From Saccoglossus kowalevskii (lineage: Eukaryota > Hemichordata > Enteropneusta > Harrimaniidae), in NCBI RefSeq assembly GCF_000003605.2, contig NW_003120920.1:445922-481649 (forward strand): a DNA stretch of 35,728 nt, written 5' to 3'. Made by a program: the position numbers and the translations under genes. Shown here piece by piece: positions 872 through 33,383 of this stretch; position 1 is the first letter of the stretch, and each line of letters begins with the position of its first letter. The notes under the pieces are model-generated. The model was not told the origin of the DNA, made no database searches, and was given only the letters and a program-made list of their open reading frames with translations.

Positions 872-3800
872 GTAAGTATGGTTACATTGAATCCATTCTT
901 ACAAATTACTTTATCTCTTACGTTTAAATGTACTAATTATGTGAAATGTGTTGTTAATGTAGTTCTGGGCGAGGTTTTACGGTAAGAAAGTTGGTGAGCA
1001 ACAGAATATATATCCGTTGCCAGGAACATCTGATTTACAGTTATTCGAAGTACAGGTAGGACTACATGATTACTTATATTTAGTTGTACACATGGCTATA
1101 CTGTTTATGTCACTCATCGGTTTAGAGCTTAATGAATTAGGTGATATTTATCTACCTTCAGGAAGGTGTCACACAGTAATGGTAGTTATGCATCTGAATC
1201 ACTGGATGACATTTTATAGAAGGTGGCACTTTCACCATTAACTTACTTACTAGTGTTTACCACTTTTGGCCCTATGACCCATTATTCTGGAAGTTGGGTT
1301 ATTTTTTTAAACCACACATACAAATGAAATACCATGAAATACCTTTGTATTACACATCAAATATTCCATGTAGTATATATATATAATTGAAATACACCTA
1401 TAACCATGTGTTTGAATAAAAATGTAAATGCACAATAATAAAAGAGACAGAAAAAAAGTAGTAATAAATCATCCAAAACAAAGAGGAACAATTTAGTTAT
1501 AAAATGTTCTGTATAGACGGACCCCCCCCCCCTCCGATTTGTTGAAGTATATTATTACTACTGGATTTTTGTATTAGATATCGCATATGTGGCACTTGAA
1601 AACTATTGCAAATATCGGAATACAATAGGTATTCGAACAATAGATATATTTGAATTGTTTAGGTAGGCCAATTTGAAATATGCACTGCGCATATGCGCAA
1701 CACAGCAATATGTAAACTGATCAATCAGTAGTTTTAAGTTTAAAGTCAAAGTGATAACAGAATCACTTGAGCAAAAAATATGCATTACTTTTGATAGGGC
1801 AGTGACGAAGCTCTCAAAGTGACAGACACATTTGGTGATGAAGACGGTGATGACGTAGCTCGGGTAAGTACACACTGTACACATAACTCAATGTGGATTT
1901 TTGTAGCAATTTAATCATGACATTTTAATAATAAAGTCACGAATGTTAACACAATTACTGCTGTATATCTTTTCATTTATTTAGGAACGACCTGATGTAC
2001 ACAAAGCTGTCTTGAACAATGACAAAGAATTGTTGAAGTCATTGATAAAGTCAGGCACTGACGTTAACATTACTGATGAGGTATGAATTTATTGTCATTG
2101 GGTTTTAATGAGCACGTGAATACCCTTACACAAAACATATTTGCAGTGCATGAACAATTATTTTGTGCTTATGCACATAAGCCAAACATGTTTTGAGGAC
2201 CATGGCTGATTGTATACCACTCAATATTGATATAAATCAGTGTTTGATTATGCTTGGATCCTCCATTAAATTATGCCAGTTAGGCAATTCCATATATTTG
2301 TACAATGATGGTTTGATATATTAGCTATTTAGCTATTTTTATGATAATAAATACTATGGGCTCAGTCTGAGATATTTTAGGGGTGTAAGGGAATAGAGCC
2401 CATGAACCACAGTGATGATGGGGTAGACATTTTGGTACTATGGATGGTCAATACCAGTTGGGATAATGGTAATCTACAAGGTAACAATAATCTTTTCTCT
2501 GGTCTTACCGAGTCTTCAACTATTTCCTTTCCTCGTCTTTTTTAATATATAGTTACCCTCCACCTGGGAAGCTGCTCCATTGTTTGTCACTTTGACATAT
2601 GCCACACAGGACAATGTTGCTATATTGTCTACCCTAGACTTTATACCAACAGTGAACATAGCATCACCAACTTTATTCAAATCTTTTTCGTCAACCCTCT
2701 TCTTTGGTTTCATTGTATTCTTTGTTAATTTGCCGCTGTTTAAAAGGGGGGAAAGGGCCAAGTTGTCCAGATTGATAGTGATTCCGTAACAGCAAGTGAT
2801 TCATTTCTTCTGGATGCAAATGTTCAGCCCACAGTACATTGTTAATGGATTTGCTTGATTTGATGGTGGTTTAATGTGCTCATTAGCTGCATGTATTTGG
2901 TATGTTCAGCAGTGCATTAAAAGATTCATTTTGGCTCGATTATCATGAATGTCCTTGAAGACCATGAATTATTTCCTTTTCAGTCAGTCTCTTCTTAAGA
3001 ACGTGTACAGGTATATTACCTGGTTAATGCAACATATATTTGCTTCTGGTGTGCTTCATATCTTAGTCTGCCAAGATATGTATTTCACATAAAGCTAGAA
3101 CACGTAAATAAACTCACGAAAATGTAGCCAAATTAAATACAATGCACGAAGAATATCAAATGAACTGTATGGTGTGCTAAAAAAATCATTTTACAAATTT
3201 CAATTGACACAACTATCAAACACTATTACAGTGAAAATATACAAAGATTGGGTGATATATCAATGTCTGTTTAGCGTCTCAATAATGTTAGATTTCACAA
3301 AGTCACGAAGTATATTTACCCCTCGATTGTAGTTAATACAATATTCTCCCATCATTCCATATTCTATCATATTTATTATGTATACTGTAACCAATTTTTA
3401 TTTTATAGAAAGGCATCTCAGCTCTTCACTTAGCAAGTCTAAATGGGAATGTCGATATGGTCAATATTTTACTAAAGTCCGGTGTGAACAAGCATGCGCA
3501 AACAAAGGTAGATGTTATTATATATGAAAATATTCAATACAAATAACAAATAACGTTTTACATTGTGTGTACAATGATAATATGTGTTTTATATTTCATA
3601 GAATGGTGCGACAGCTTTTCATTTAGCAAGTCAAAATGGCCATGTGGGTGTGGTCAGAATTTTACTGGATGCAGGGGTAGACAAACAGATTCGAACGAAG
3701 GTACTACACAATAAATCATATTTATTCCTGAATGTATTGAACACAACAAAATCAGCATTTCATTGTGTGCTACTGCAATCATTTTTTTAATTTCTAGGAT

Positions 3801-6800
3801 GGTGCTACGGCTCTTCATTTAGCAAGTCTGGATGGACATGTAGATGTATTCAGAACTTTACTGGATGCAGGTGTAGACAGCAGTGCACAAACGATGGTAT
3901 TATATTTTTGTAAATTCTTGATTATACTGAACACAATGACATGAACATTACGTGGTTTTTACTATTGTAAATATTTTATATTTCATAGAAAAGTTCCACA
4001 GCTTTTCATCTAGCAAGTCAGAATGGGCATGTGGAGGTGGTCAGAATTTTACTGGATGCAGGTGTAGACAAGAATAAACAAAAGAAGGTACTCCTTGATT
4101 CTATCATATTTATTTCTGTATTGAATATAATGAGATGAAGCATACGTTGTGTTTACTACTGTAATAATGTTAAATTCCATAGAAAGGCACCACAGCTATT
4201 CATTTAGCAAGTCAGAATGGACATGTTGATGTGATCCGAATTTTACTGGATGCAGGTGTGGACAAGAATGCCCAAACAAAGGTACTACATATCTTATTAT
4301 ATTTATACACGGCCAATTGACTGACAGCAAGATTAGCTAACTATTTACTGTGATTTCTTGCAATATTGCAAGAGACAAGAAATTGTTTTACCGACTGTAA
4401 TTTCCTGCTAACTTGAAAGTTTCAAGTGTGTTGTTGAGAGAGCGGAGTTATTTTAAACAGTTAAGTCATGAAGCCGGTGCAGTCCTGGCTCTTAAGTATT
4501 AAACAAATTTGAGAATGAGTTGTTTCTGGGGAAATCATATTGGCCAGCCAGTGTATAAGTAGCTGATACCACGGGACATCAGGGAGTTGTTCCAGGTTAT
4601 GCCCTGACATCACTTTTCTGTCACGCAGTGTTTCCTACATTTATACCTGTGTGTATTAAATACAATAAAATGAGCATTTCGTCGTGTCTACTACTGCAAT
4701 GGTTTTATATTTATAGAAAGGAACCACAGCTCTTCATTTAGCAAGTCAAAATGAACACATTAATGTGGTCAGAATTTTACTGGATGCAGGTATAGACAGA
4801 AATGCACAAACAAAGGTAATACAGATGCTATCATACTATCATTTCTGATTTATTAAATACAATAAAAAATGAACATTACATTGCGTTCACTACTGTTATC
4901 ATTTTACTTTCCACAGAAAGGAGCCACAGCTCTTCATTTAGCAAGCCAAAATGGTCATGTTGACGCTGTCAAAATTTTACTGGATGCAGGTGTAGACAAG
5001 AATAGACAAACAAAGGTACTACATATATTATATATTTCTTATCATATTTTACTGTCGTGTGTAATACTTTAATATGTTTTTTTATTTCATAGAAATGCAT
5101 CACAGCTCTTCATTTAGCAAGTCAGTATGGACATGTTAATGTCGCCAGAATTTTATTGGATGCAGATGTAAACAAAGAAGTACAAACAAAGGTATCATAC
5201 TATCAAAATGGACATTACATCGTATGTAATACTGTATTAATAAATTTATACTCCAGAATAATACTGGTTGCTGATATGAATTGAATGTACATATTCATGT
5301 AGAAATGAATGTGCTAGATATTCTTATTGTACTTAATATAGTGTGATAATATGTATTACTGTATTCATTTGTTATATTATAGGATGGCGAAACAGCTCTT
5401 CATTTAGCAAGTCAGAATGGGCATGTTGATGTGGTCAAAATTTTACTGGATTCAGATGTAGATAAAAGGATGTGCAAAAGAAGGTACTACAGATTATTTC
5501 ATATTTATTTCGCTGCTTGAAGAATACCACCAAAATATTAGTATACATTATAGTATGATGTGTAATTATCATTTCAATGTGTGATGTAACTACTTAAAAT
5601 CTATCGTAGGGCGAATGGGCAGCTCTTCATTTAGCAAGTCAGACTGGACATGTTGATGTGGTCAGAATTTTACTGGAAGCAGGTGTAGACAAGAATATAC
5701 AAACAAAGGTACCACATATTACATCATCCATTTCTCAATATATTATGAAAAAGACATTCTATCGCGTGTAACACTGTAATAATTTTATATTTCACAGAAG
5801 GGCATTACAGCTCTTCATTTAGCAAGTCAGAATGGACATGTTTATGTGGTCAGAATTTTACTGGATACAGATGTGGACAAGGAAGCACAAACGAAAGTAA
5901 TACAGTTTTTATCATATTTATTCCTGATTGTATTGAATAAAACAAAATGTACATTACGTGATTTGTAATACTGTAATACTTTTATATTTCATAGAAAGGC
6001 AACACAGCACTCCATTTAGCAAGTCAGAATGGACATGTTGATGTAGTTAAACTGTTACTGAATGCAGGTGTGGACACGCATGCGAAAACGAAGGTAATAC
6101 AGATTACATCACTCATTTCTCAATATATTATGAAATTGATATTCTATTGTGTGTAACACTAATAATTTTATGTTTAACAGAAGGGAACGACAGCACTTCA
6201 TTTTGCAAGTCGAAATGGACATGTTGATGTGGTCCGAATTTTACTGGATGCAGGTTTGGACAAGGAAGCACAAACAAAGGTACTACAGATTCTGACATAT
6301 TCATAACGTGAATATAACGTTATGAGATACAGGTTTAGAAAAGATGCTATATTTTTCCTCAACTAGAATGCCAATGAATTTACATTATAATACGAAATGT
6401 GTTTTTCTTTTTAATGAACCTCTTTTTAATATAATGTAGGACAAATCAACAGCTATTCATTTAGCAAGTATGAATGGACATGGTAATGTAGTCAGAATTT
6501 TACTAAATGCCTGTGTAAATAAGAATGCACGAGAGGAGGTAAAGCAGATTATAATTTATTCATTCACATGCTTATCAAATACAAATCGAATAATTATAAA
6601 ATTCACATTGTGTCTATCTGTTAACTGTGTGCTATAACTGTTTTCAATGTATTGTAGGACAAATGGACAGCTCTTCATTTAGCAAGTCAGGAAGGACATA
6701 ATGAAGTGGTCAGAAATTTAGTGGATGCAGATATAGATACGAATGCACAAACAAAAGTATGCTGTAATACACAAGGAATTTCACAGTGCATACATGCAGT

Positions 6801-9621
6801 GCATTTTTGTGGTTTTTGTGTTTTGTGGATGAGAAGAAGTTGCACTCGGGGTGTTAATAAATACGACATTGTTGAAAGAAAAAAATTTAGGCCACTAAGG
6901 GAAAATTTAATGTTTACAGTATGTATGTGTATGATAGAGTATATATCATAGTCAGTTGTCTGCTCGCTGATGTTGTTATTGAACAGGTACATCAACGTCA
7001 AGGCTATGGTAATTAATATGCAAATATGGGGAATCCAGGAAATACCCTCATTCACGAGCAACATCATCGTGTTGAATGTGTTGTCACAATATTTGTACGT
7101 GATTTTATAATAAACCAGACATTGAGATTCTTTATTTTATAGGATGGTGTCACAGCGCTTCATATAGCATGTCAGAATGGACACATTGATGTGGTCCGAA
7201 TTTTGCTGGAGGCAGAAGTTGACAAGAAAATGAAAACAAAGGTACAGCAGTTTTGATCTTATTTGCTCCGGAATGTATTGAATACAATAACATATACATT
7301 ACATCATCAACAGTAATGTACATTTTTTGATTTTGTAGGATGGCACCACAGCTCTACATTTAGCAAGTCAGAATGGACATGTTGATGTCGTAAGAATTTT
7401 ACTGGACGCTGATGTAGACAAAAATGCACAAATGAAGGTACTAGATATTCTATCCTGTTAATTTCTAAGTTTATGTGTATGTATAAATATGTACTTCTCT
7501 CCCAAATGTGTGCTATGATTGTTTTCATATACTGTAGGACAAATGGACAGCTCTTCATTTAGCAAGTAAAAATGGACACGATGATGTGGTCAGAACTTTA
7601 CTCAGTGCAGATGTAATCAAGAATGCACAAGGAGAGGTAGTAAAAAATATTTATGTCTAAGCTTATTGAATGCCAACACAACATATTACAATATTTATTT
7701 TGTGTGTTTATCTGTTGAATGTATGTAAGTATTTTAATGCATTACAGAACGAATGGACAGCACTCCATGTAGCAAGTAAGAATGGACATACCAATGTTGT
7801 CAGAATTTTACTAGATGCTTGTGTAAACAAGAATGCACAAGAGAAGGTACTAAAGATTCTATCTTACTCACTGATAAGCCCATATATATCAATGGGGAAG
7901 ACAATATAATGTTCACATTGTATGTTAATGCATTTTAGGACGAATGGACTGCTCTTCATTTAGCAAGTCAGGATGGACACATTGATGTGGTCAGAATTTT
8001 AATGGATGCCGATGTAGATAAGAATGCACGAACAAAGGTACTACTGAATACATCATACATTCATGATTGTGTGGAATATCGATGGAATAGACATTATATT
8101 GCGTGTACTGCTGTGATCATTTCATATTTTACAGCATGACGTCACAGCTCTTCATTTAGCATGCAAGAATGGACATATTGATGTGGTCAGAAGTTTACTT
8201 GATGCAGGCTTGGACAAGAATGCACCAATGAAGGTACTAACATTTCTATCATATTCATTTCTAAAGGTATTGAATAGAATGGAATAACATTTCATCATGT
8301 GCATTTCAGTAATCATTTCAAACTGTCAACCTATGCGAGCAGGTGCTTGTCAAAAAGAGTAGCAGTTTCTCCTAGGACAACTGATGTATTCATCTCAATA
8401 TATGTGTATGATTGAGTTGTGCAGCATATCATTTCTGTAGATTGGCTCTGAGCCAACTCTCACTACAAATATAACACACTGGCACTCCGTACTAACATAT
8501 CTATCAGTGTCAAAAATGACTGGATCTGACCACCAAATGTTTTGCTTCTGGCTAGCAAACCAAAATGATCACTTCTGACACTAAACGTCAGAAGGCCAAT
8601 TCATTTATTCTCTGAAAGTAATCTTCCATTCCGATCTTGTGATGTTCAAATTCACTTCAAATCACTATGGCGAACAAAATTGCTTATCTTACGAAATGTT
8701 CTGTAAATGAACTTCAGGTACTACATCTGTCTACTTTATTCCAATTCAGTCTTAGATAAATTGGAGTGAGAAACAATGCCCCCGAATTTGGCCACAGAAG
8801 CAAAGATGCTATGGGACATGCCAAAACATACACACTGACATTCTCAGTTTTGATAATAAATGTATGGCATCTCATAAGATTTCGGCTTGTGCTTGTGCTC
8901 ACAGTAGGGTGGCTCTCAAATCCATTACTGGTGATCACAGGGTTATGTCTTGCTTGAATGCTTGTGATAATCTTATGAGTAAACCAATGAAACATATTCT
9001 GATGCTGTTGCTAAAATGACTTTTGATCAGTAGTGTACATTACAAGGGCTTAGTCACGATGCTCATATTGCTATATATTGCTGCATACACTGGACATGCA
9101 TGTTCCTACCAGTGCACGCAGTAGTGCTCAGACCAGGCTCAAACCCAGTTATCTATAGTACAGCCATCTTTCGCATCATTTGTTTGGAATAAATGTTTTT
9201 TTCTTCCGCAGCCACTACGCCAATGCTAGTTTTCAAAATACTTACTTATAAGCACAATAAACACTAAAGCAATTCAGTTTTTGGTTCATATCAGAAAAAG
9301 ATGAATATTATTATAGCTACTGCATTTGGTATTCACAGCTAGAAGACCACACATGGGAAGCGAATAGAACTTGGTTAGTCAAGGGATACTATATGCATTC
9401 TGAATTTCTCCCAGTTTGCATGTCCGTGATCACTAAATATTGCCATTTAGTTGTTTCTTCTAGGTAAATAATATACTGTCTCATTGAGTACTGATTATTC
9501 GTGTTTATAATTTTAGTCACTGTGAATTGCAATCTATATGTTTCAGAACAAGAAGACTCCACTTGATTTGGCAAAGGAAGCTGGTCACCAGGATATAGCT
9601 GATCTTCTTCAGGATGCCTAA
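869..9621 (+). CDS. Gene 1: multi-exon ankyrin-repeat protein, about 800 residues, one repeat per exon
   Basis: The joined reading has 25 coding exons, all in phase 0: 869-871 (ATG only), 963-1055, 1798-1863, 1985-2080 (cap), 21 ankyrin exons between 3409 and 8233, and 9547-9621 ending in TAA. It encodes a 31-residue basic N-terminus, a 22-residue acidic segment, a half-repeat cap, 21 repeats and a 24-residue C-terminal half repeat. The consensus contains [19 protein letters not shown] followed by [11 protein letters not shown]. There is no signal peptide or membrane segment, so a cytosolic binding scaffold is likely. No enzymatic domain is present. The exon at 5383-5483 is 101 bases long and breaks the frame unless skipped; with it restored to 99 bases the product would be 803 residues, and with it skipped 770. 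Ankyrin identity is certain from the motif. The partner is unknown, and a link to gene 2 is inferred from shared cap and terminal exons. Confidence 0.85.
963..1055 (+). CDS. Gene 1 exon 2: basic N-terminal segment
   Basis: There are 31 open codons between an AG acceptor and a GTAGGA donor, phase 0 on both sides. The peptide starts [15 protein letters not shown] and ends DLQLFEVQ. I recognise no domain. Its aromatic and basic start is unlike the rest of the protein. The last five residues (LFEVQ) loosely resemble the LPAVQ that ends the exon before the ankyrin module in gene 2. Confidence 0.6.
1798..1863 (+). CDS. Gene 1 exon 3: acidic linker
   Basis: Twenty-two codons lie between the acceptor TTGATAG and the donor GTAAGT, phase 0. 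The peptide [20 protein letters not shown] is strongly acidic and probably disordered, a spacer between the N-terminus and the ankyrin array. Confidence 0.55.
1985..2080 (+). CDS. Gene 1 exon 4: N-terminal ankyrin cap
   Basis: Thirty-two codons encode [20 protein letters not shown] and then [12 protein letters not shown]. This is the usual capping half repeat: a helix pair without TPLH, followed by G-x-D-V-N. A decayed relative lies at 24786-24868 in gene 2. The exon is followed by a 1328-base intron, by far the longest among the first half of the gene. Confidence 0.75.
2081..3408. other. Long intron between cap and first full repeat of gene 1
   Basis: No ankyrin exon remnant is seen. A minus-strand open stretch of 81 codons (2516-2761) is basic and looks like decayed mobile DNA. 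Upstream of it on the same strand is a short peptide reading [10 protein letters not shown], which faintly recalls the QNxNESxN motif of a transposon-borne family common in invertebrates. The resemblance is too short to classify. Confidence 0.35.
3409..5191 (+). CDS. Gene 1 ankyrin exons, repeats 1-8
   Basis: Eight 99-base phase-0 exons: 3409-3507, 3602-3700, 3798-3896, 3989-4087, 4183-4281, 4717-4815, 4917-5015 and 5093-5191. Each starts (A/G)A(A/T) plus a short variable pair, then T/S-A-(L/F/I)-H-L-A-S, and ends just before GTA. Most begin KG or NG/DG. Position 2-3 and the middle of the second helix (HVGVV, HVDVF, HVEVV, HINVV, HVDAV, HVNVA) carry most of the variation, as expected for a binding surface. 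Introns are mostly 90-100 bases and resemble each other. Confidence 0.85.
4309..4638. mobile_element. Candidate 330-base insertion in an ankyrin intron, flanked by an 8-base duplication
   Basis: The intron before repeat 6 is about 340 bases longer than its neighbours. The octamer ATTTATAC occurs at 4301-4308 and again at 4639-4646. Removing 330 bases plus one octamer restores a typical 196-base unit. No good terminal inverted repeats and no coding potential are seen, so it could be a SINE or a non-autonomous element of an eight-base-duplication class. Confidence 0.45.
5383..5483 (+). pseudogene. Gene 1 ankyrin exon 9, frameshifted (101 bases)
   Basis: The exon starts [20 protein letters not shown] and runs to the end of the second helix. 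Then two extra bases (AG in GATAAAAGGATGTG) shift the frame before the donor GTACTA. If spliced normally, the next exon is read out of frame and hits TAG at 5632-5634, giving a product of about 391 residues. Since neighbouring exons are all phase 0, skipping this exon keeps the frame. A sequencing error is the other simple explanation. Confidence 0.6.
5610..6756 (+). CDS. Gene 1 ankyrin exons, repeats 10-15
   Basis: Six 99-base exons: 5610-5708, 5798-5896, 5995-6093, 6181-6279, 6440-6538 and 6658-6756. The repeats begin GEW, KGI, KGN, KGT, DKS and DKW. The last two belong to a distinct subgroup with D-K at the start; the intron before each also ends in a similar (A)TGTAG tract. The second-last repeat carries [14 protein letters not shown], less acidic than the usual DAGVDKN. 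Confidence 0.85.
6757..7142. other. 386-base intron between repeats 15 and 16 of gene 1
   Basis: It is about 290 bases longer than typical introns of this array. I see no target duplication and no reading frame that resembles a protein. It may hold a decayed insertion or a lost repeat unit. Confidence 0.4.
7143..8233 (+). CDS. Gene 1 ankyrin exons, repeats 16-21
   Basis: Six 99-base exons: 7143-7241, 7339-7437, 7538-7636, 7748-7846, 7939-8037 and 8135-8233. Three consecutive ones (start DKW, NEW, DEW) form a tryptophan subgroup with the DKW repeat at 6658. The last begins HDV and ends KNAPMK. The TALHLAS motif is intact in most; one reads TALHVAS, another TALHIAC and the last TALHLAC. Spacing of exon starts is 191-210 bases. 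Confidence 0.85.
8234..9546. other. Last intron of gene 1, 1.3 kb
   Basis: No further ankyrin exon or remnant is seen. Open stretches on both strands around 8714-8995 overlap each other and show no domain, so I treat them as chance. The intron ends in a normal TTTCAG acceptor. Confidence 0.45.
9547..9621 (+). CDS. Gene 1 terminal exon: C-terminal ankyrin half repeat and stop
   Basis: The 24 codons start [20 protein letters not shown] and end in TAA. This is a classic last repeat: TPLDLA, G-H, then a second helix with no loop after it. The gene 2 terminal exon (27857-27931) agrees at 18 of 24 residues by eye. Confidence 0.85.
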   Translation, partial: NKKTPLDLAKEAGHQDIADLLQDA

Positions 9622-18492: not shown

Positions 18493-18581
18493 TTATAAGA
18501 CATGAAAGACGACAACATCGAAGGAACTACTTGAAGCGGGCGACGGGTGGCTACTGCTCCGACTTACTGCACATGTCACAC
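18493..18581 (+). promoter_or_regulatory. Possible TATA promoter and first exon of gene 2
   Basis: TTATAAGA at 18493-18500 is followed about 80 bases later by a strong donor CACAC|GTAAGTG at 18582. ATG TCA CAC (18573-18581) ends in phase 0 at this donor. Joined to the exon beginning at 21657 it gives M-S-H-I-M-N-G in frame. This mirrors gene 1, where the intron follows the start codon. An alternative is a promoter just before 21660, where AATAAAAGG occurs near 21426. Inference from splice logic; not proven. Confidence 0.33.
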
Positions 18582-21500
18582 GTAAGTGTTATTATTACAG
18601 TGTTTTGAGCGTTTTTCATAAAGATCGTTCAAGATGTATGTCCACCTTATGCCGGCGATGTAAATTAGCTATCATCCTGTAAATTGGGTTATACCTGTCA
18701 CCTGAAGTTATTTGCATTAAGACAGATTTGGGTATAAGATCCTAATACTCACTGGATAGCGAATGCGAGATATGGTATATCCAGAAATTGTTCTCATACA
18801 GCTAAATATTCTTATGTCTGACAACATTGTATGTCTTTGATATCAACCCTGAGTGTATTTTGTGTGCAAATTGTGAGTTTAGATACACAGTGTTATGCTA
18901 CAAATCACATTAAATATCTATGTCTACGAGACCGGCAGAAATTACAGGGGATAGGTCGGTGTTTCTTGGGGGTAGTTCACCGATTTTCTTGCGAGTGGGT
19001 TACAGTAATTTGTGCAGGCATGGTGGTGGTGGGGGGGGGGGTGGTGGTGGTGGTGGTGGTCGCAATTGTTTGTGCAATGCAAGCCTCATAACACCACAGT
19101 ATAAGCAGCCGAGATTGTATGCATAATCTGGTTGACTGTGTTGCCTCAACAAATGACTATTCCTATTACTCATTTAGCAATTGTATTTACAATTTACAGA
19201 AGCACTTACGTGGGCTTGTATGAGAAGAACTACCAACTACTGTGAATTATATAGACAGCCGACAGTTGACAAAGATTACTTGGGTAATTTATCATACCTG
19301 CCCTTATTATTATTTACATACACATGTATTTATTATCACCAGAGACCGAGTAAGTATGTACTGACATTACCGCTGACTGTGTCAGTAACACAAATATGTA
19401 TATATACTGAACATACGGCGGTACGATAACCTTGTTATCATGTTGGATATTCGTAACTCAAATTTCATTATATATAAATCTGATATAGTAANNNNNNNNN
19501 NNNNNNNNNNNNNNNNNNNNNNNNNNNNNNNNNNNNNNNNNNNNNNNNNNNNNNNNNNNNNNNNNNNNNNNNNNNNNNNNNNNNNNNNNNNNNNNNNNNN
19601 NNNNNNNNNNNNNNNNNNNNNNNNNNNNNNNNNNNNNNNNNNNNNNNNNNNNNNNNNNNNNNNNNNNNNNNNNNNNNNNNNNNNNNNNNNNNNNNNNNNN
19701 NNNNNNNNNNNNNNNNNNNNNNNNNNNNNNNNNNNNNNNNNNNNNNNNNACATGTATCCCAACATGTATAATCTATGTACCAAGTTTGAATGACAACTGA
19801 CAAAGCATGTCCAAAATACAACATTTTCAAAAAACAAGATGGCTGCCAGTCGGCCATTTTGAATGGAATCGCTAAACCACTGCATGTGCATATGTCCCAC
19901 ATAAAGTACTAGGCACATGCAAAGAATGAACGGAAACGGTCCAAGGGATTCTGAGATATGACTCCGGACGGACGCACGGACACACGGACGGACGGAGACC
20001 GAATTATAAGTCTCCGTTTTCGGACTTCGTCCGAACGGGGACTAAAAAGCAGACCCAAAAAAAAAAAAAAAATGTAAAAAGAATCGAGCTGACCGAAATA
20101 AAATTAAATAAATTGCAACTTTAAGGTGTACTTACATTCTTTAAACTGCCCGTGAATGCAAATTATCTATTTTTTAATTCATTATACTTTATTGTGTAAA
20201 GAAATTTGTAATGTCTGATAACAGCATGTGTCTATAAATATAAGTTCAGACAAAGTATAAAACACGGACACTTTGACCACAGTGACGACAAAGTGCCTTG
20301 CCACTGTGAAAAGATGTGTACCTCAGTGTCACGAGGTCGTACCAATTATTAACCAAAAACAATCAATAATCATTTATTTACCATCACGTGTGCAGGTTCT
20401 TAACAAGTTTAAAGTTACATAATTAGTAACACACGGGGATAATTTAGACTGATGGACGCCATTATAGCTCAATATAATTGTATGCATATATAAATAGAGA
20501 CACAAATGCACATCGGTCAATCTTACAACGCCACCCACAAACTACATGAAAGCATAGCGTATTAGGTACAGCAAAAACTATGCTTGGTATGGTTACTCGT
20601 CTATGGCAATATAAACTCCCCTGCAATAGTTCAGTGCTCAGCGCAACCTTCACGATTAGTAAGAATTGAAGACGACATAAACATGAGAGAGGAAGAGGAA
20701 AGTGGACATTCAATACTCTTCATATATATTTGTAAATTATCACGTAAATAACTGGCCAGAAAAATAATAGATTCTATAAATTAACAAGGATGTGTGTAGG
20801 TGTGTAAATGATCGGTGGCGTGCGGTTACCTGAATGACATGTAACCGACGACTGGATTCCTCACATTACGGTATCAATAGATTTCATTTTGTAGTAGACT
20901 TTGATGTTAATTGTTGGGTTCAGCTACGGTAGTAAGTGGATCCGCTCACTAGTTGTTGGGTCACAGCATGGAATTTCCTCACCAGTCAAAATCCTGAACA
21001 GGAACGCCAAAGAACACGTGATCGAACATCTAGTACCATGGTGTCACACAGTCCATTGTGCCAATAGTTAACCGGTTTGGGCATATGAACAAATGTTGTG
21101 CTTTACATACTTTTAAAAAATACGTAGGTTTTTTTTATTTTTCTATATATTTTGTTGTTGTTACAACTATGTTTTTTTTCTTGCATATAAGGAGTGTATA
21201 GCAGACAGTTTTGCTAATTTTTGAATTAATTTAAAATCACATTCCATGTCTAGTGCAAGTTTGTAACGTTTTCCCAACAACTTTTGTGGGCTTCATTGGA
21301 AATTGTTTTGTATTTCAAGTTATTCTTTGCTTATGTATGTGTGTTTCCTATTCTTTTTTTTCTCTCTAAAGTCACATGCATAGCTCGAATATGCAGTTTA
21401 AGCAATCAGCAGAATTATTTGACAAAATAAAAGGCTGACTGCTTTTCACAGTACTCCTGCTCTCGGTACAAGGGAGGTCAACAAGGTTGCCATTGACCTG

Positions 21501-24500
21501 CCTTCAAAAAGAGATCAATTCAACATGAATCCTGTAGCTTTTATTTTGCATTTGTTCAGTCTTTCCTAATCCAAGGAAATATTCCATACTGGAGAAGTTG
21601 AAGACACATGGTCAATCAATAACTACGTAACACTTGTAATTGTAATCTAATTGTAGATCATGAATGGTGCCCGAAAATGGAGTGCACTAATTGTAGGTCA
21701 TGAGTGGTGGCCGAAAAGGTTCAAAGATGGATCACTATCTCTCATTCAGAGAGATATTGCTAACACACTAGCCAAGGGAAAGGATATAAACAAAGTGTAT
21801 TGCACTGTTCTCGATGCAACACAGGAAGAAATAGATGATGCACGACAACTTGGAGTAGAGCTAACTTTGCCTGAAGTGAATAAGCGTTTGCGAAATAAGA
21901 CCCCAACTAGTGACTGGCTTTTGTTGCATGAATCCTACTACCTGCACCTCAAGGAATGCCATGACATTAACATCATTATCGGCCATTTATCACATTTAGG
22001 CAGCACTGTGGATGCAGCAAAAGATATCAAGGAAAAAGTATTCCCACATGCCAAATTAGTTGTATTTAACCACTATATTCCAGAAAATATTAGTTCATTT
22101 ACCCCCACAGAAGTTCAGAAGAGAGAAAATGAAGCAATCGAACATGCACAGTCTGCTAATCACGTGTTGTCAGTTGGCCCAAAAGTGATGCGTCACTTTG
22201 TACGCAAGTTTGGTGCACGTGTAAACACAACACATGCCTTATATCTTCCTGGCATAGATAACATGTTTAAAAAGAAAGATACGAACATATCTAACCTGGA
22301 AAATGGAATTGAGATACTTTCTTTGTATTCTATCGAAGATAATAAGAAAATCCGTGACATTTTGTGCGGAGTTGCTGATCCAAATTGTGAAGCAAATTGG
22401 AAGCTTCGTGGCACAAAATCTGACTCGGAGACAGGCCATAATCTAATGACTAATTGCCAAGATAATTGTCCCAACCTACAGATTAATCCATATCCGAATG
22501 GATCATACAAAGATATTTTGCAGGATCTAGAACAGTGTCATCTTTTTCTTCATAGCCCTCAAAAAGATGCATTTGGTATTATGATTCTAGTTGCGATCAC
22601 AGCTGGTGTGCCAGTTCTAACTGCATCTCAAACAGGTGTGGCGCTGTTTTTACGACAACGATTTGGAAAGCAATATGACAGATTTATTGTTGATGTTGGT
22701 GTCAATGAAGCTGATACATGTGCATGTGATAAATGGAAGATCAAAATCTGGAAAATTCTGCACAACTATCCAGAATCATGTCGCCGAATTCTGGCACTAA
22801 AGCAAGATCTAGAGAAATGTGAACATATCGAGGAATCACAGAAAGCATTTCGAGAATGGTGCTTTGAGAAATCCCAGCAGCAAAATGAAAACGTGGTATC
22901 TCCAGGTAACCATTCTCACCAGTTGCTATTTTTTTTTATCTATAAAAGCATCCAATAGTTTACATCAGAATTCTCGGCATTATTTTCATCTTTGTTTTTG
23001 TTATCTATCATGCAAGTTTCAGCAGGGATTGCATATATGTATACTTTGACTAATATACATTAACTATTCCATTATAGGCACGTATTCTACTTCACATGGG
23101 CAATGCGAATGTATGGATGATGTACAGTATACAAGTAAGTTATCCATGAAATTATGTTAATAAAATAGACATTGACCAGTTTATTTTACTAAGATAGTAT
23201 TTATAAATATAAACTGTTTGCTTTCAGACATTGTAAGTGCCCTTTCTGGACAGTCGCAGCAAGTCCAAGAATGTGAAAAAGAAATGCTCTATAGTAAGTT
23301 ATGCATCTGTTTTCACTTTTTATAACAAACATGTTATTAACAAAATGATTATTATATAAAATGGTTTGTTATCTATCTTACTAAATATAATGCATTAACT
23401 GTTTTGATTCAGAACCTGAGGCTTCTCAATCTACTATACAGAATAATCAAGAGTCTGAATATGAATATGAATATGACGAATCATTATCTACGAGTGAGTT
23501 TACATTTAAAGCACATTTCAAAAATTGGTGAAAGCTGGCACTGACACTTTCTGTCGCTTATGAGGACAATCCTGGCCTATTGACATTTCACTCATAGTCT
23601 CAAATAATATCATTGTTGAAATGTGTGTTCTCCACATGTAGACCATTCATATTATTTTATTATGATTCTCTAAGAAACAAGAAACAGAACACCTTACTAT
23701 TTAGGGGAAAATGAAACAATGTTAAGAGAATGTAGATTTTGCCGCGAATTTTTGAAATGTTTGTTTGTATTTTAGGGCAACTAGGAATGCACGTGAAGAT
23801 CGAATCTTCAGTGAACCATAGAACATCATGCCATAATCAAGCAATGCAGTATGTTAATTATCTAGCCTTTTCTAGCCTGAAAAGCAACGAGGATCTCCCA
23901 AATACTATAGCTGAGCTGAGAACACTTGGAGCATTTGCACAACGTTTACATGGTCATTGGCTCGTTGTGGAATGCCAACAAATTGCCACTCTCAATGGTT
24001 TGTGGGAGTTATACGACAGTAGAAAACTAGACAAACTGTTTCAGAAGGACATATCCACCAAATTCTCGCAGGATCTCCACACATCAGAGTTCAAACTGAA
24101 GACTACAATTCAGAAATGGAATTATAGAAAATGTTTGTTGGATTTGGAGTATGGTGAAGGTAAGTGTATAGGTTACACAAAGACCATATTCAAAGTGTGA
24201 ACTTTCTCTTATTCTAGGTTAATTGACTATACACATTTTCCTACAATGTAGATCCGGATGAAAAAGGATTTGAAGTAATTAGTGGAACACATATTAAGTA
24301 TTCATTGCAAGAAGAAAGGTTACCGGCAGTGCAGGTATTTAGAACATAACTGTACGATATTAACTTTTTAGTTGAGAGATGATTTAGGCACAACCAAATA
24401 TAGGGGAAGCATATTATTAGTCAAACTTAAGTACTAAATGAGAGTAGAAAAATATTTGCTTTAAATACTGTGAATGCACGGGGACGTGTTTAAAATAAAT

Positions 24501-27500
24501 TCATTGTGAATGACTTTAAGTTTAACACTAGCAAAGTATTCAGTTCAACAGTTTTGTCTCCACAGTCAAGACTAAGTCACACTGGTGCTCATGTCAAATT
24601 GCAAATATTTTGTCAGGGCAGATGCAGAGTTCTTAGTGTAACAGATACAGATGAGTTGAAAGCAATGTAGATGTTACTGCAGATGAGCTTAGTCCACATG
24701 TATATCTGAATTACACTTTAAAAATAAAAGTAAATTAAGAAAAATATTTATATATTATATATTTTTATTTATTTGTATCTGTAAGAACAAAGCATTTTGG
24801 ATAATGACAAAGATTTGACAAAATCATTGATATTATTTGTCACTTTGAATGTCAACATTACTAATGAAGTATAAATTTTTTATTTTTTTATTTTTTATTT
24901 ATATTTTTAGTAAAACCTTGAAGCCCGCAACCCATTTTGGGTAGTTGGTGCACATCACTTTAATTTGTAAAACTCAAGACGGCCAACTGCCGTTTTTTTT
25001 GAAAAAAATCTGATTCAGACATGGCCAACAGCTGGAATATGCATAATATATGAAATGTATAATACAGTGTTTAATATGATTTGTTACTATGTTTGATGTT
25101 GTGTAGAAGACATGGACCTCTCTTCACTTAGCAAGTAAGAATGGGCTTATTGGTATGGTCAGAATTTTACTGGGAGAAGGTGTTGACAGAAATGCACGAA
25201 CGAAGGTACGAGATAGTTAGCAATATTTACTTATATATGTATAAAAAAAGTTTATATTATACATGTATAATACAGTAATCATTTTATATCTGATAGAATG
25301 GTGGGACAGCCCTTCATTTGGCAAGTCATAATGGATATATTCAAGTGGTTAGAAGTCTACTGAATGCAGGGGCAGATAAGAATTTACAAACACAGGTACA
25401 TATACTACATATTCTACTAGATAGATTTAATTCAGTATGTATTGAATACAATGAATTTAATTTATGTGTTTTCTGTTATCACTTTATATTTTACAGAATG
25501 GCTTCACAGCTCTTCATGCAGCAAATCTCAATGGACATGTCGATGTAGTCAGACTTTTACTGGTTGGAAATGTTGACAAGAATGCACAAACAAAGGTAAT
25601 GTAGATTGTATCATACATATTCATGAAAGTATTGAATGAAATATACATAGCATCATGCACACTACTGTAATAATTTTATTTTCATAGAATGGATTCACAG
25701 CTCTTCATCTAGCAAGTCGTAATAAACATGTTGATCTGGTCAGAATTTTACTAGCTGCTGATGTAGACAAGAATGCACAAACAAAGGTACTACAAATTCT
25801 ATTATATTTTATATGGGTACAAGCAAATCTTATAGCCCTATGTTATTATTTTTTTCGACATAACATGGTCACATGGGTTAGCCTCCATTTAGGATTTCGC
25901 TAAACAAGAAGTAGTTTTTTACTGATGCCACATTTACCTGATTTTTTTTTCAAATTGCCATGTTGCATCTCTATATTAAAATTATTCAGACTCCTAAAAA
26001 CTGATTCGAATCAGTCACATGGCTTGGCCGCCAAATTGGATATTCCCCAAAAATATTGTTTATTTGTTTTTCATCAGTGCTTTAACCAATCAAATTGATA
26101 TTTGGCATGCATGGTCAAATCTTATGATAAAAATAAAATAATTTTGATCAGTCACCTGGTTTGGCTGCCATCTTGCATTTTTCCTTTTTAACAAGGGTTT
26201 CAACCGATCAAATTAATGTTCAGCATGTAGCATTAAGGCCAAAGTATATTAGAAGAAATTTTTTATTGATCGACATATTCGGCAGCCATATTGGATTGAA
26301 GTTAAAAATCAAAAGTTGCCATTTTGAACCCTTTTCTGAGAATCTAGACATTCTGATTTCATTGTTGTCAAATTATTAATATATGGGCTACTTATTGCAA
26401 TATTGAACTATAACAATAAAATGAATAGTTAACACTTCAGCAGTCAGTATAGCACCCTTTTGAGGAAGCATAGTTTATTCAATCATGAAATGAACATAAC
26501 ACATGGTGGGAATGTGTGTTTACTTTGTAATTTGATTCAAAATGGTCGTTGCTACATGTTTTTTCTTCTTCAGGTGTCTTCTTCATTTTGTTGGACATTC
26601 CTTCTCAGATTGTATTCAAAGTTTGGTAAAAAGACAAAATATTGTGTCTTTAAATGTAATTTCAGCCTAATACAAATGTTATTGACTTGTAATTTATAGA
26701 ATGGCTTCACAGCTCTTCATTTAGCAAGTCGGAATGGACATGTTGATGTGGTCCGAATTTTACTGAGTGCAGATGTGGACAAGGAAGCACAAACACAGGT
26801 ACTACTGATTGTTTCGTATTTGTTTTTTGTGATATATTGAATACACTAACATGGATGTTGCTGCTATTCAATTACTATCACTATTTTGGTTACTTAGATC
26901 TAAATAGATAAATTAGGTAACAGATAATTATCTACTGGGATAATTTTTTCCCTGGGAGATTAACGGAAAGTGGCGCCCTCTAGTGGCCAGTAAAGATGAG
27001 AACCCTGGAAAACCTTTCCCTGTGTTGTTTCACATTGTTAAATGACTGGCACATAAATCCAGTATTCTACTGTTTACACTGTGGCTACTAGTTCCTGCTC
27101 ATTTCTTACACCTCGTCCATTCTACCTCGGCAGCTCTTGCATTCATCAGTTGTAGGTTTCGCTTCAACCAAGGAAACAAACCTGATTTCTTAGGGTGTCC
27201 GGTACATACCGGAAACACCACTTCTGGCAGATCACCAGGGACATTTTTCATCCCAGAGGTAGATTTTAGTGAACCATTTAAATATTTAGATGATATCTAA
27301 ATATAAAATCAGTGCAAGTAATTGGCAGCCTCTAAAAAACAATAAAAAGTGTGATTTTGCTTCAGATTTTTTATTATGCATGTATACTACTGTCATAATT
27401 TTTCTATATTATAGAACTGCTTCAAAGCTCTTCATTTTGCAAGTCAGAAAGGACATGTTGATGTGGTCAGGATTTTGCTGGGTGTAAATGTAGACAAAAA

Positions 27501-27931
27501 TGCACGAACGAAGGTACATATACTAAAAATTCTAACATTCATTCCTGAGTGCATTTCATGTAAGGAAATGAACATCAAGACCTGTGTAGGGTGCATGTGT
27601 AATGATTTTATATTTTATAGAATTTCTACACAGCCCTTCATTTAGCAAGTCAGAACAGACATGTTGATGTCGTCAGAATTTTACTTGATGCTAATGTAGA
27701 CAAGAACGCTCAAACAAAGGTACTGGTAGTACGTATTCTATCATAGTTAATTAATCTAATTAATTTTTTTTCTATGTGTAATCATATATAACCATGCTTT
27801 GTCATATGTTTGATTACCTAATGATTACTGGTGCATATCATTTCAACTTATTTCAGGATAAGAAGATTCCACTTGATTTGGCCAGAGAAGCTGGTTACCA
27901 AGATATCGCTGACATTCTTCGGGATGCTTGA
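18573..27931 (+). CDS. Gene 2: GT4-conflict-like glycosyltransferase / TRADD-N-like / ankyrin fusion protein
   Basis: The joined coding exons are 21657-22905, 23078-23134, 23228-23293, 23413-23493, 23776-24159, 24252-24334, seven ankyrin exons from 25107 to 27719, and 27857-27931 with TGA. The product counted from the ATG at 21660 is 894 residues. An optional upstream exon at 18573-18581 would add three to four residues. Order: GT-B glycosyltransferase-like domain (about 5-400), variable linker (416-483), TRADD-N-like domain (about 520-606), short linker, seven ankyrin repeats (640-870) and a terminal half repeat. There is no signal peptide or membrane segment, so it is cytosolic. In animals, GT4-conflict and TRADD-N domains are known parts of proposed immune or conflict proteins; the role here is inferred. 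The exon joins are well supported by splice sites and frame. The domain names rest on motifs only. Confidence 0.75.
19021..19060. repeat. (GGT)n / poly-G simple repeat
   Basis: Four GGT-type units, a run of eleven or so G, then several GGT units. Reading frames crossing it encode poly-glycine or poly-valine and are not genes. Confidence 0.9.
19492..19749. other. Assembly gap (258 N)
   Basis: A run of N. It directly precedes the second hairpin-ended repeat, so the gap probably lies within that repeat. Confidence 0.98.
19750..20046. repeat. Hairpin-ended interspersed repeat, copy 2 (partial)
   Basis: Shares accaagtttgaa, caagatggctgccagtcggccattttgaa, the cggacggacgcacggac run and the terminal stem-loop (20009-20043, AGTCTCCGTT ... 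AACGGGGACT) with copy 1. It begins at the gap, and the left end is unseen. A poly-A run at about 20054-20071 follows shortly after the end. Confidence 0.65.
20072..21656. other. Intergenic DNA or 5' intron of gene 2
   Basis: No exon is recognised. At 21475-21499 AGGTCAA and TTGACCT form an inverted pair, and an AATAAAAGG TATA-like word is near 21426. If gene 2 starts at 18573, this is its first intron; it then ends in the acceptor TCTAATTGTAG at 21656. Confidence 0.4.
21657..22905 (+). CDS. Gene 2 main exon: GT4-type glycosyltransferase-like domain
   Basis: A 415-codon open frame from ATG 21660 to the donor CCAG|GTAACC (phase 1). The N-terminal Rossmann half starts with SALIVGHEWWPKR and DGSLSLIQRDIANTLAKG, matching the G-G-(L/I)-S-x-x-N-R-E-L-A pattern of the GT4-conflict family. 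It continues with IIIGHLSHLG and FPHAKLVVFNHYIPE (residues 106-142), then NHVLSVGPKVMRHF. The C-terminal half has LHSPQKDAFGIMILVAITAG then VPVLTAS (297-323), the place of the EX7E donor-sugar motif. Here the two acidic positions read D303 and V311, so sugar transfer may be weak or lost. A family GT4 transferase would move a sugar from a nucleotide donor to an unknown acceptor. An in-frame TAG immediately upstream (21654-21656) supports the chosen start unless the exon is spliced at 21656. Confidence 0.75.
23078..23493 (+). CDS. Gene 2 linker exons 2-4 (small symmetric cassettes)
   Basis: Three short exons, 23078-23134, 23228-23293 and 23413-23493 (57, 66 and 81 bases), all start and end in phase 1, so any can be skipped without a frame change. 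All have strong donors (A|GTAAGT, A|GTAAGT, A|GTGAGT). The peptides are polar: GTYSTSHGQCECMDDVQYT, then NIVSALSGQSQQVQECEKEM, then KPEASQSTIQ to SEYEYEYDESLST. The tyrosine and acid run EYEYEYDE is a possible phosphorylation or docking site. No domain is recognised; it is likely a flexible spacer between the glycosyltransferase-like and TRADD-N-like domains. Confidence 0.65.
23776..24159 (+). CDS. Gene 2 exon 5: TRADD-N-like adaptor domain
   Basis: A 384-base exon (phase 1 to 1) encoding residues 484-611. It reads GMHVKIESSVN, ASQ-free helix AMQYVNYLAFSSL, then RTLGAFAQRLHGHWLVVECQ, then LNGLWELYDSRKLDKLFQKD, ending SEFKLKTTIQKWNYRKCLLD. The pattern of a beta strand (LVVECQ), a helix with L-x-x-L-W-x-x-Y-x-S-(G/R)-x-L-x-x-x-(F/L)-Q, then beta LKTTI and a helix with C is the TRADD-N pattern as I know it from animal and bacterial conflict proteins and from the death-receptor adaptor TRADD. 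In TRADD this alpha-beta domain binds TRAF2. Partner here unknown. The name is from pattern reading and needs a profile search. Confidence 0.6.
24252..24334 (+). CDS. Gene 2 exon 6: linker that resets the phase to 0
   Basis: Begins with GAT completing a split codon, then PDEKGFEVISGTHIKYSLQE and ERLPAVQ. It enters in phase 1 and leaves in phase 0, which is what lets a phase-0 ankyrin module join the phase-1 front half. This marks the seam of the fusion. Confidence 0.65.
24786..24868 (+). pseudogene. Decayed ankyrin cap exon inside gene 2
   Basis: The piece aligns with the gene 1 cap exon: aacaaagca-ttttggataatgac against cacaaagctgtcttgaacaatgac, then LTKSL and NVNITNE before a GTATAA donor. 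One base is missing after GCA, and the first five codons of the cap are absent. With the frame broken it must be skipped for the fusion to be read, and exon 6 (phase 0) joins the first 99-base exon directly. Confidence 0.6.
25107..25786 (+). CDS. Gene 2 ankyrin exons, repeats 1-4
   Basis: Exons 25107-25205, 25297-25395, 25497-25595 and 25688-25786, all 99 bases and phase 0. Starts: KTWTSLHLAS, NGGTALHLAS, NGFTALHAAN, NGFTALHLAS. The N-G-F opening is typical of this gene and not seen in gene 1. Ends run to (R/K)NAxTK or KNLQTQ. Intron lengths are 91-101 bases, similar to gene 1. Confidence 0.83.
25787..26699. repeat. 913-base intron holding diverged tandem repeats
   Basis: The words (gt)cac(a/c)tgg.tt(a/g)gc(c/t)(g/t)cca recur near 25869, 26014 and 26149, with a weaker relative near 26268 (gacatattcggcagccatattgg). 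The spacing is about 120-145 bases, giving about four diverged units. Non-coding. Confidence 0.5.
26700..27719 (+). CDS. Gene 2 ankyrin exons, repeats 5-7
   Basis: Exons 26700-26798 ([20 protein letters not shown]), 27415-27513 ([20 protein letters not shown]) and 27621-27719 ([20 protein letters not shown]), all 99 bases and phase 0. The first ends KEAQTQ, the third KNAQTK. The NCFK start replaces the usual threonine of TALH with lysine. A 616-base intron lies between the first two; it contains a 27194-27219 hairpin. Confidence 0.82.
27857..27931 (+). CDS. Gene 2 terminal exon
   Basis: Twenty-four codons starting DKKIPLDLAREAGYQDIADI, then LRDA and TGA at 27929-27931. It is the C-terminal half repeat, closely related to the gene 1 ending but with a different stop codon and conservative changes (T/I, K/R, H/Y, L/I). 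Confidence 0.85.
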   Translation, partial: DKKIPLDLAREAGYQDIADILRDA

Positions 27932-32165: not shown

Positions 32166-33143
32166 TTCGACTTTTTATTGAAAACGCCTTGACATTTTAT
32201 ATTCAGGTGATTTGAGTATTTGGTTGTCATTACGAACATTTTACTTCTCTTATTTTAGTGATTATTTTTTTTCTCATTTTTGGTTATTTCTGACGTCTTT
32301 TTGAAAACAACCATCCTTAGATGGATCACGTACTTTCAGATGATTTACTTCTTTCCTCTATGAGATTAATGCATTTAGTGTCAATAACAACAATTTTTAG
32401 TATCTAGTACTAGTATTTTGATACCCAAAATCCCTTGGGAGATAGACTTATGGCTATGCAATACGTGTTTATTTTATCGTATTGCTTATTACTACCGTGT
32501 CACAACAACACTATAACGAACTGCCGTGCATTAGGCAAGCACGGAAGCCAAACAGACACTTAGAAAAAACGACTGATAGGATAACGACTGATATTCCGTG
32601 AACACTGAACAGACATGTCTTTAAAATGGATGAGTCACGTGACAATTTATACCGAGCATGAAGATGACAACACATTTTGCATTGTAGTTTTATTTCGAGA
32701 AATATACTAATTTCAACTTGATTTTAGGATTTTCAGTCAGTTTGACTAAACACAAATCTACGTGCCCCTGCCATGGCTTTCGTTTTGGTATGTTAAATGT
32801 GAGGATTTGTCTTGTTATTCACAAAACATTCTCTGGAAAGTTTAGATAACTTTACGTGTCAAAATACCTCTATAGTTTTAGGAGGGGACACGTTGCTGGT
32901 ATAGGTAGGACATGTGAATGTTCTGTATAATAAAATAAACTCCTTTCCACTGAAATTAAAAATTATCCCACTTTTTAAAAATTAAATGCAAAACAATTAA
33001 AACAGCCTTATTGTTGAGAAACGCGGACAAATTAAATTTGACTCTAAGGGAAATATGCTGTCTTCTCGTTCTGATCGAACGCCTATGTGTGTTTGGTCCA
33101 GATGGAACTTTTAAAACAACAGGGTAAGCCCACTTTTTTTTCG
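32166..33143. other. Intergenic DNA without a recognised gene
   Basis: AT-rich; no exon, transposon protein or strong structure is seen. Confidence 0.4.
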
Positions 33144-33383
33144 GAGAGGTCGTACTGACGTAAGAGAGGTCGTATTGACACAAGAGAGGTCGTATTGACA
33201 CAAGAGAGGTCGTACTGGCACAAGAGATGTCGTACTGACACAAGAGAGGTCGTATTGACACAAGAGAGGTCGTACTGGCACAAGAGATGTCGTACTGACA
33301 CAAGAGAGGTCGTATTGACACAAGAGAGGTCGTACTGGCACAAGAGATGTCGTACTGACACAAGAGAGGTCGTATTGTCAGAC
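33144..33383. repeat. 20-base minisatellite with 60-base higher-order unit
   Basis: About twelve units of gagaggtcgtattgacacaa. Three variants, attgaca, actggca and g(at)gtcgtactgaca, follow each other in fixed order to form a 60-base block repeated three times and almost identical (33181-33360). It is open in several frames on both strands, but only because 60 is divisible by three. Confidence 0.9.

What the first reader, a model, noticed from the sequence alone, without database searches (positions are those of the whole stretch)
18573..27931. A glycosyltransferase-like, TRADD-N-like and ankyrin-array fusion gene
One spliced gene appears to join a GT4-conflict-like domain, a death-adaptor-like TRADD-N domain and a run of ankyrin repeats. 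The first two are known from proposed animal conflict proteins (established knowledge of the families). Adding an expandable ankyrin recognition array would make an effector, adaptor and sensor in a single chain. The combination is inferred from motifs; I do not know it as a described system.
Basis: partly seen in the sequence, partly recalled or inferred. Interest (0 to 1): 0.88.

Follow-up and report, generated by a model that had tools for sequence, protein, structure and literature searches.

The report
Disarmed sugar-transferase, TRADD-like, ankyrin fusion gene
An animal gene joins a former sugar-transferring enzyme domain, a cell-death-adaptor-like domain and a run of ankyrin repeats, and its enzyme part appears to have lost its active site, which suggests a sensor or scaffold of cellular immunity rather than an enzyme.

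Summary
A 14-exon model (21660-27931, + strand) reads in frame with GT-AG introns. It joins a GT4-conflict domain (Pfam E 4.5e-44), a TRADD-like N exon and seven 99-bp ankyrin exons. The same order recurs at two further loci of this 572-Mb animal genome (C3614, C4098). The exon at 18573 is unproven. The TRADD-like call rests on paralog profiles; the window's own exon has no Pfam hit.

The "effector enzyme" reading is doubtful. Of 23 own-genome GT4 domains read (36 matches exist), 9, including this one, lack both glutamates of the E-x7-E donor motif. The same 9 lack the Gly-Gly loop and Lys, 8 lack the Arg, and they form one branch of the tree. The other 14 and 5 bacterial relatives mostly keep these residues. 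Two pairs among the 9 evolve under constraint. Best reading: a non-catalytic GT4-derived module plus TRADD-like adaptor plus ankyrin array, in immune or death signalling.

GT4-TRADD-N-LRR proteins are published (PMC8195603). I did not find the ankyrin version or the active-site loss in the text I could read. New variant of a known kind.

The parts
21660..22905 (+). exon 1: GT4-conflict domain (PF20706), 415 codons; D303 and V311 stand where E-x7-E should be
   Evidence: Pfam E 4.5e-44; chain residues E281/E289 of RfaG/WaaG 2iv7 align to D303/V311; motif table
23078..23134 (+). short linker exon, phase 1-1, optional
   Evidence: splice model only; no homology
23228..23293 (+). short linker exon, phase 1-1, optional
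   Evidence: splice model only; no homology
23413..23493 (+). short acidic linker exon, phase 1-1, optional
   Evidence: splice model only; no homology
23776..24159 (+). TRADD-like N exon (called TR here), phase 1-1
   Evidence: 7-sequence TR profile vs TRADD-like alignments: scores 68.6 and 81.4; 400 shuffles reach at most 20.1; phase-1 borders available in all 7 TR exons
24252..24334 (+). connector exon, brings phase 1 to phase 0
   Evidence: splice model; no homology
25107..25205 (+). ankyrin exon 1
25297..25395 (+). ankyrin exon 2
25497..25595 (+). ankyrin exon 3
25688..25786 (+). ankyrin exon 4
26700..26798 (+). ankyrin exon 5
27415..27513 (+). ankyrin exon 6
27621..27719 (+). ankyrin exon 7
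27857..27931 (+). terminal exon: half ankyrin repeat (DKKIPLDLAREAGYQDIADILRDA) and TGA
   Evidence: a 75% identical copy lies after the neighbouring array (9547-9618) and a 61% one (18 residues, E 0.004) after the C3614 array
3409..9618 (+). neighbouring gene, 3' part: 21 ankyrin units (20 as exact 99-bp AG..GT exons) and a terminal exon at 9547-9618; a tandem relative of this gene's ankyrin part
   Evidence: no second GT4 or TR match on this contig

Best explanation
The gene encodes an intracellular immune or cell-death signalling protein of about 894 residues. Shown: the modules, their order and recurrence; absence of the GT4 donor-binding residues in this gene and in the 8 other copies on its branch among 23 read; constraint in two pairs of that branch. 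Inferred: the C-terminal ankyrin stack binds a ligand; binding frees or clusters the TRADD-like N domain, which recruits death-fold partners. The GT4-derived N-terminal module no longer transfers sugar; it acts as a scaffold, a regulatory or nucleotide-sugar-sensing lobe, or a decoy. GT4-conflict genes with intact motifs persist as separate paralogs.
For: GT4-conflict E 4.5e-44. Of 7 TR matches in the genome, 6 (this gene included) lie 0.9-2.9 kb downstream of a GT4-conflict match on the same strand; the seventh is 76 kb from the nearest. Ankyrin arrays follow at C1342, C3614 and C4098. Phase-1 borders are available at all 7 TR exons (partly read by eye) and a phase-1 donor closes the GT4 exon in 7 of 7 loci examined (two of these also have a donor-like site in another phase). 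I defined the disarmed set by loss of E-x7-E (E1 0 of 9, E2 0 of 9, by construction). Independent of that choice: GG 0, Arg 1, Lys 0 of 9, against 13, 11, 10 of 14 other own-genome copies (E1 13, E2 14) and 4, 4, 5 of 5 bacterial ones (E1 5, E2 4). The 9 are one side of a branch, 99/96, and 90/88 with the E-x7-E, GG-loop and Arg stretches removed. dN/dS 0.43 (0.26-0.71) and 0.54 (0.41-0.68) for two pairs of the 9. Mutating either Glu of E-x7-E reduced GnaT function, the first most (PMC12856342, passages). Ankyrin residues vary most at recalled DARPin binding positions in the upstream array (p 0.011) and C3614 (p 0.001); not significantly in the 7 repeats here (p 0.09).
Against: No transcript and no biochemistry. 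No usable structure: the single-sequence model has pLDDT 38 and the second job was not possible. Streptococcal GacB homologues are said to carry GX7E, and GacB works (PMC6802508, passages), so losing one Glu is not proof of inactivity. D303 is a conservative change. TRADD-like identity is weak for the window's exon alone (scores 21.2 and 25.5 against shuffles of at most 20.1). Of 4 paralog TR exons scanned, 2 hit PF20694, under its cut-off (17.8 and 13.7 bits, cut-off 23.7), one of them below an unrelated family; 2 do not hit it. Two of the 9 disarmed copies (L036, L039) show no TR in the sequence searched, though L036 runs into N about 5.5 kb downstream. dN/dS of this gene's own GT4 could not be judged: dS to its nearest relatives is about 2. 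Twelve of the 36 GT4 matches were not read.
Confidence: 0.6

Rival explanations
1. An active glycosyltransferase effector: on ligand binding by the ankyrins, the TRADD-like domain clusters the protein and the GT4 domain modifies invader or host molecules, as PMC8195603 proposes for GT4 domains in general.
For: GT4-conflict family membership; bacterial relatives sit in conflict contexts: NB-ARC-TPR-GT4 (L051) and CATRA-N-GT4 (L052); the same genome holds copies with all motifs.
Against: This gene and the 8 others on its branch lack E1, E2, Lys and the GG loop; 8 of the 9 lack the Arg.
Confidence: 0.17
2. Two or three separate genes or alternative transcripts: a GT4-TRADD-like gene followed by an ankyrin gene.
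For: No transcript data; about 0.8 kb without model exons between 24334 and 25107; an ankyrin array without a GT4 or TR match of its own lies upstream in the same window.
Against: The connector exon gives matching phase; the same order recurs at C3614 and C4098; no start or stop is needed between the parts in the model.
Confidence: 0.13
3. A decaying pseudogene relic of a formerly active fusion.
For: The active-site residues are gone; one relative (C3421) has stops in its GT4 stretch.
Against: 894 open codons here; 9 long open GT4 frames on the branch; dN/dS below 1 in all 300 resamplings for each of two pairs of the 9.
Confidence: 0.05
4. The 128-residue exon is an unrelated domain, not TRADD-like.
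For: No Pfam hit for the window exon; PDB profile search finds only chance-level matches; part of one comparison set was itself picked by weak TR similarity.
Against: Against the set picked by PF20694 alone (L047, L049) the TR profile scores 81.4, four times the best of 200 shuffles (20.1); one of the 6 PF20694 matches in the genome at E up to 1 is a TR exon (C3421, 19.2 bits, E 0.58).
Confidence: 0.1

Closest known systems
Metazoan GT4-TRADD-N-LRR proteins (PMC8195603, DEDD2-like clade)
   Same: GT4 domain first, TRADD-N domain second, superstructure repeats last; lineage-specific expansion
   Different: Ankyrin instead of LRR; this branch's GT4 lacks its donor-binding residues, which the text read (sections 11 and 15, and passages) does not mention
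TRADD-N-ankyrin proteins of the NCOA6 clade (sponge, cnidarian, Crassostrea; PMC8195603, passages)
   Same: TRADD-N followed by ankyrin repeats, proposed to sense invaders
   Different: Those carry DED or other Death-like domains in front, not GT4
Bacterial GT4-conflict proteins (for example L051 NB-ARC-TPR-GT4, L052 CATRA-N-GT4)
   Same: Same GT4-conflict family, conflict context
   Different: GG, Arg, Lys and E-x7-E all kept in 4 of 5 examined; no TRADD-like or ankyrin family at E up to 0.001 in the four scanned by Pfam
NLR / STAND receptors
   Same: Logic of effector or adaptor domain plus repeat array in one chain
   Different: No NTPase domain in the model

Membership tests
GT4-conflict (PF20706) | Match above Pfam's cut-off over the whole domain | tested here: met
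   151.4 bits, cut-off 26; profile 1-374 of 385
Catalytically competent GT4 glycosyltransferase | E-x7-E donor motif, Gly-Gly loop, Arg/Lys phosphate contacts | tested here: not met
   D303/V311; no GG; Arg and Lys columns hold S and R
TRADD-like N (PF20694) | Pfam match above cut-off | tested here: not met
   Window exon none; of 4 paralog TR exons 17.8, 13.7, none, none; a further exon before TR in L030 16.6; cut-off 23.7
TRADD-like N superfamily | Homology to accepted members by profile comparison | tested here: met
   Score 81.4 against L047+L049 (27.2 and 19.5 bits to PF20694) and 68.6 against a 5-row set (one row above cut-off, three below, one without a hit); best shuffle 20.1
TRADD-N fold | alpha-beta sandwich structure | tested here: inconclusive
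   AlphaFold2 single sequence, pLDDT 38.4
Ankyrin repeat proteins | Several Ank repeats above cut-off | tested here: met
   PF00023 183.2 bits, 7 stretches
GT4-TRADD-N-LRR architecture of PMC8195603 | LRR after TRADD-N | tested here: not met
   Ankyrin repeats instead; no LRR family in the Pfam scan
DEDD2-like TRADD-N clade | Phylogenetic placement among TRADD-N clades | not tested
   No reference set at hand
STAND/NLR receptor | NACHT or NB-ARC NTPase | tested here: not met
   None in the 894-residue model

The most novel reading that the evidence does not exclude
One branch of the animal GT4-conflict family became a group of conserved pseudo-glycosyltransferases when it was joined to TRADD-like adaptors and expandable ankyrin arrays: an enzyme first taken from bacterial conflict systems and then disarmed into a sensor or scaffold of immune signalling, beside motif-intact paralogs (some next to DED exons) in the same genome.
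Probability: 0.45. Interest if true: 0.72.

Novelty: new variant of a known kind. Interest (0 to 1): 0.6.

Why it matters
GT4 domains in animal TRADD-N proteins have been proposed as effectors that glycosylate invader or host molecules (PMC8195603). If the TRADD-linked branch is non-catalytic, that proposal fails for these proteins and the test changes: look for nucleotide-sugar binding and oligomerisation, not transfer. The genome holds motif-intact and motif-less paralogs side by side, a ready-made control pair. The single-repeat ankyrin exons (7 of 7 phase 0 and 99 bases here; 37 of 44 units with exact borders at C3614) show how such an array can grow or shrink without breaking the frame.

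Tried and rejected
Structure of the TR exon: single-sequence AlphaFold2 gave pLDDT 38; not interpreted, not used for a fold search. Structure of the GT4 domain with bacterial rows: tool switched off. PDB profile search with TR and with the TRADD-like set, and phmmer with L045's TRADD-like exon: chance-level hits or none. PF09034 in the genome: none, and its control rang nowhere. Scan for TR relatives in bacteria: no conserved stretch. GT4 scan with N-terminal patterns: no relative. Pfam on 6 other ORFs: no match over a cut-off. Of 36 GT4-conflict matches the motif table holds 23. L044 was counted with the other 14 although its first Glu is Ser. Tree cautions: L050, L044, L053 and, without motif columns, L036 have long branches; the four actinobacterial rows differ in composition. 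The organism was not identified. The DARPin positions and the roles given to the Arg, Lys and Gly-Gly columns are recalled, not from a call, and so is the name WaaG for RfaG.

Full report
WHAT IS THERE. The window lies in a 572-Mb genome of 4,830 contigs (C1342:445922-481649). Its introns and gene families (85 DED matches at E up to 1; 75 Death matches at E up to 0.1) are those of an animal. On the + strand a model of 14 coding exons runs from ATG 21660 to TGA 27931. All introns are GT-AG and the phases agree. It reads 894 residues without a stop. The first exon alone is a 415-codon GT4-conflict domain (PF20706, 151.4 bits, cut-off 26). Seven exons of exactly 99 bases, phase 0, each encode one ankyrin repeat (183.2 bits in sum for PF00023).

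IS THE FUSION REAL. Transcripts are missing, so I used the paralogs. The genome has 36 GT4-conflict matches and 7 matches to the TR exon at E up to 0.01. Six of these seven, this gene included, lie 0.9-2.9 kb downstream of a GT4-conflict match on the same strand; the seventh (C1604) is 76 kb from the nearest. Phase-1 acceptors and donors are available at 7 of 7 TR exons (three acceptors and one donor read by eye from the printed sequence, and L033 has a further AG in phase 0). A phase-1 donor closes the GT4 exon in 7 of 7 loci checked (L028 and L031 also show a donor-like site in another phase). Ankyrin exons follow at C3614 (44 units, 37 with exact AG..GT borders) and C4098 (11 units, 10 exact, to near the contig's end). 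No ankyrin match was found in the flanks fetched for C166, C1053 and C3421 (C1053 ends 2.7 kb after TR). So GT4-TR-ankyrin is a repeated architecture in this genome, and TR also occurs with other or unknown C-terminal parts.

WHAT THE MIDDLE EXON IS. Pfam sees nothing in the window's exon. Of 4 paralog TR exons scanned, two give sub-threshold hits to PF20694 TRADD-like_N (L034 17.8 bits; L031 13.7, below an unrelated family at 17.7; cut-off 23.7) and two (L033, L038) do not hit it; a further exon in front of TR at C4098 gives 16.6. In the whole genome PF20694 has 6 matches at E up to 1, of which one is a TR exon (C3421, 19.2 bits, E 0.58). A profile of the 7 TR exons scores 81.4 against two members picked by PF20694 alone (L047, 27.2 bits; L049, 19.5) and 68.6 against a 5-row set, two rows of which (L030's further exon and L045) I had noticed through weak TR similarity. 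400 column shuffles reach at most 20.1 and reversed alignments 17.0. The window's exon alone scores only 21.2 and 25.5, so the identification depends on the family. The fold itself is untested: the one structure job gave pLDDT 38.

THE ENZYME PART HAS LOST ITS ACTIVE SITE. In the alignment with RfaG (WaaG; 2iv7) the two glutamates of E-x7-E (chain residues 281, 289) face D303 and V311. I aligned 23 own-genome GT4 domains and 5 bacterial ones. Nine, including this one, lack both glutamates; I defined the set by that. Independently of the definition, the Gly-Gly loop is kept in 0 of the 9, the Lys in 0 and the Arg in 1. In the other 14 own-genome domains GG, Arg, Lys, E1, E2 stand at 13, 11, 10, 13, 14; in the bacterial ones at 4, 4, 5, 5, 4 of 5. 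A tree places the 9 on one side of a branch with support 99/96; with the E-x7-E, GG-loop and Arg stretches removed it is 90/88, so the grouping does not rest on the motif. Seven of the 9 carry TR, the start of it (L042, cut by a run of N) or a TRADD-like exon (L045) downstream; L036 and L039 do not in the sequence searched. The four bacterial relatives scanned match GT4-conflict at 379-443 bits, for example NB-ARC-TPR-GT4 and CATRA-N-GT4. Two pairs of the 9 have dN/dS 0.43 (0.26-0.71) and 0.54 (0.41-0.68), not above the two motif-intact pairs (0.63, 0.61), so the disarmed domains are still under constraint; for this gene's own GT4 the synonymous distance to its nearest relatives is about 2 and says nothing. 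In GnaT, a GT4 enzyme, E283A nearly abolished and E291A partly reduced function (PMC12856342, passages). Against over-reading: GacB carries GX7E (PMC6802508, passages).

THE ANKYRIN PART. The repeats are on average 64% identical to one another in protein and 75% in DNA, while 60 bases of the following introns, compared without gaps, are 36% identical: this suggests old exon duplications rather than recent array growth. A neighbouring gene on the same strand (3409-9618) has 21 such units and a terminal exon 75% identical to this gene's, but no second GT4 or TR match lies on the contig: related ankyrin parts joined, it seems, to different front ends. Variation is highest at the recalled DARPin binding positions in the upstream array (p 0.011) and C3614 (p 0.001); for the 7 repeats of this gene it is p 0.09. 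Surface exposure alone could produce such a pattern.

HOW IT PROBABLY WORKS. Inferred: a soluble cytoplasmic protein; the ankyrin stack binds a ligand; the TRADD-like domain passes the signal to death-fold partners, which this genome holds in number; the GT4 remnant is a scaffold, a regulatory lobe or a nucleotide-sugar sensor. Context: one GT4 with both Glu (C2347, without the Arg and Lys) has DED matches 1.1 kb before and 2.5 kb after it, and another (C4091) one 1.4 kb before. The C166 TR locus has a weak Bcl-2-like stretch 3.5 kb after TR (19.2 bits, cut-off 31.4); in the PDB its best match is FAM118B (E 0.04), then Bak chains (E 0.1 and up), so this is a lead only.

WHAT IS KNOWN. PMC8195603 (sections 11 and 15 read, other passages) describes GT4-TRADD-N-LRR in cephalochordates, hemichordates and cnidarians, TRADD-N-ankyrin in other clades, a GT4 expansion of over 500 paralogs in Acropora digitifera, and proposes GT4 as an effector. 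Its figures and supplementary tables were not available, so a GT4-TRADD-N-ankyrin example may be drawn there. For the rest I saw listings only: no other paper on the combination among those shown (20 of 34; 10 of 10; 10 of 2,948; 4 of 4; 2 of 2), and none on inactive GT4-conflict domains (12 of 398; 12 of 18). The library holds only part of the literature.

VERDICT. A recurrent fusion gene, well supported by its paralogs though not by transcripts; a new variant of a published kind; the likely loss of catalysis is the new and testable point.

Noticed in passing
window 3409-9618: Second ankyrin gene, 21 units plus a terminal exon like that of the finding's gene; its front end lies outside what was read, and this contig shows no second GT4 or TR match and no DED or Death match.
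   Followed up: partly
L031 6883-7281 (C166): Weak Bcl-2-like stretch (19.2 bits, cut-off 31.4) 3.5 kb downstream of a GT4-TR pair: possible GT4-TRADD-like-Bcl-2 fusion; PDB matches are weak and the best is FAM118B.
   Followed up: partly
L041 4596-5066 (C2347); C2347:630655; C4091:42638: DED exons beside GT4-conflict domains that keep E-x7-E: that branch may be linked to DED.
   Followed up: partly
L030 2658-3146 and L045 2483-2890: A further TRADD-like exon between GT4 and TR (L030; 16.6 bits to PF20694) or after GT4 (L045; no Pfam hit): perhaps tandem TRADD-like domains in some members.
   Followed up: partly
window 13068-13280: Reading frame that looks to me like a reverse-transcriptase fragment (by eye; no Pfam match) between the two ankyrin genes.
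   Followed up: partly
window 33083-33450: Short tandem repeat with open frames on both strands (seen by eye in the ORF list), probably a satellite.
   Followed up: no
L046 (C3686:460240-460800): Looks like the NCOA6 orthologue: NCOA6_TRADD-N 97.5 bits, TRADD-like_N 41.1 bits.
   Followed up: no
L050 (Hymenobacter plasmid NZ_CP141187.1): GT4-conflict-like stretch without a listed gene and with one in-frame stop, near recombinase and HEPN genes.
   Followed up: no
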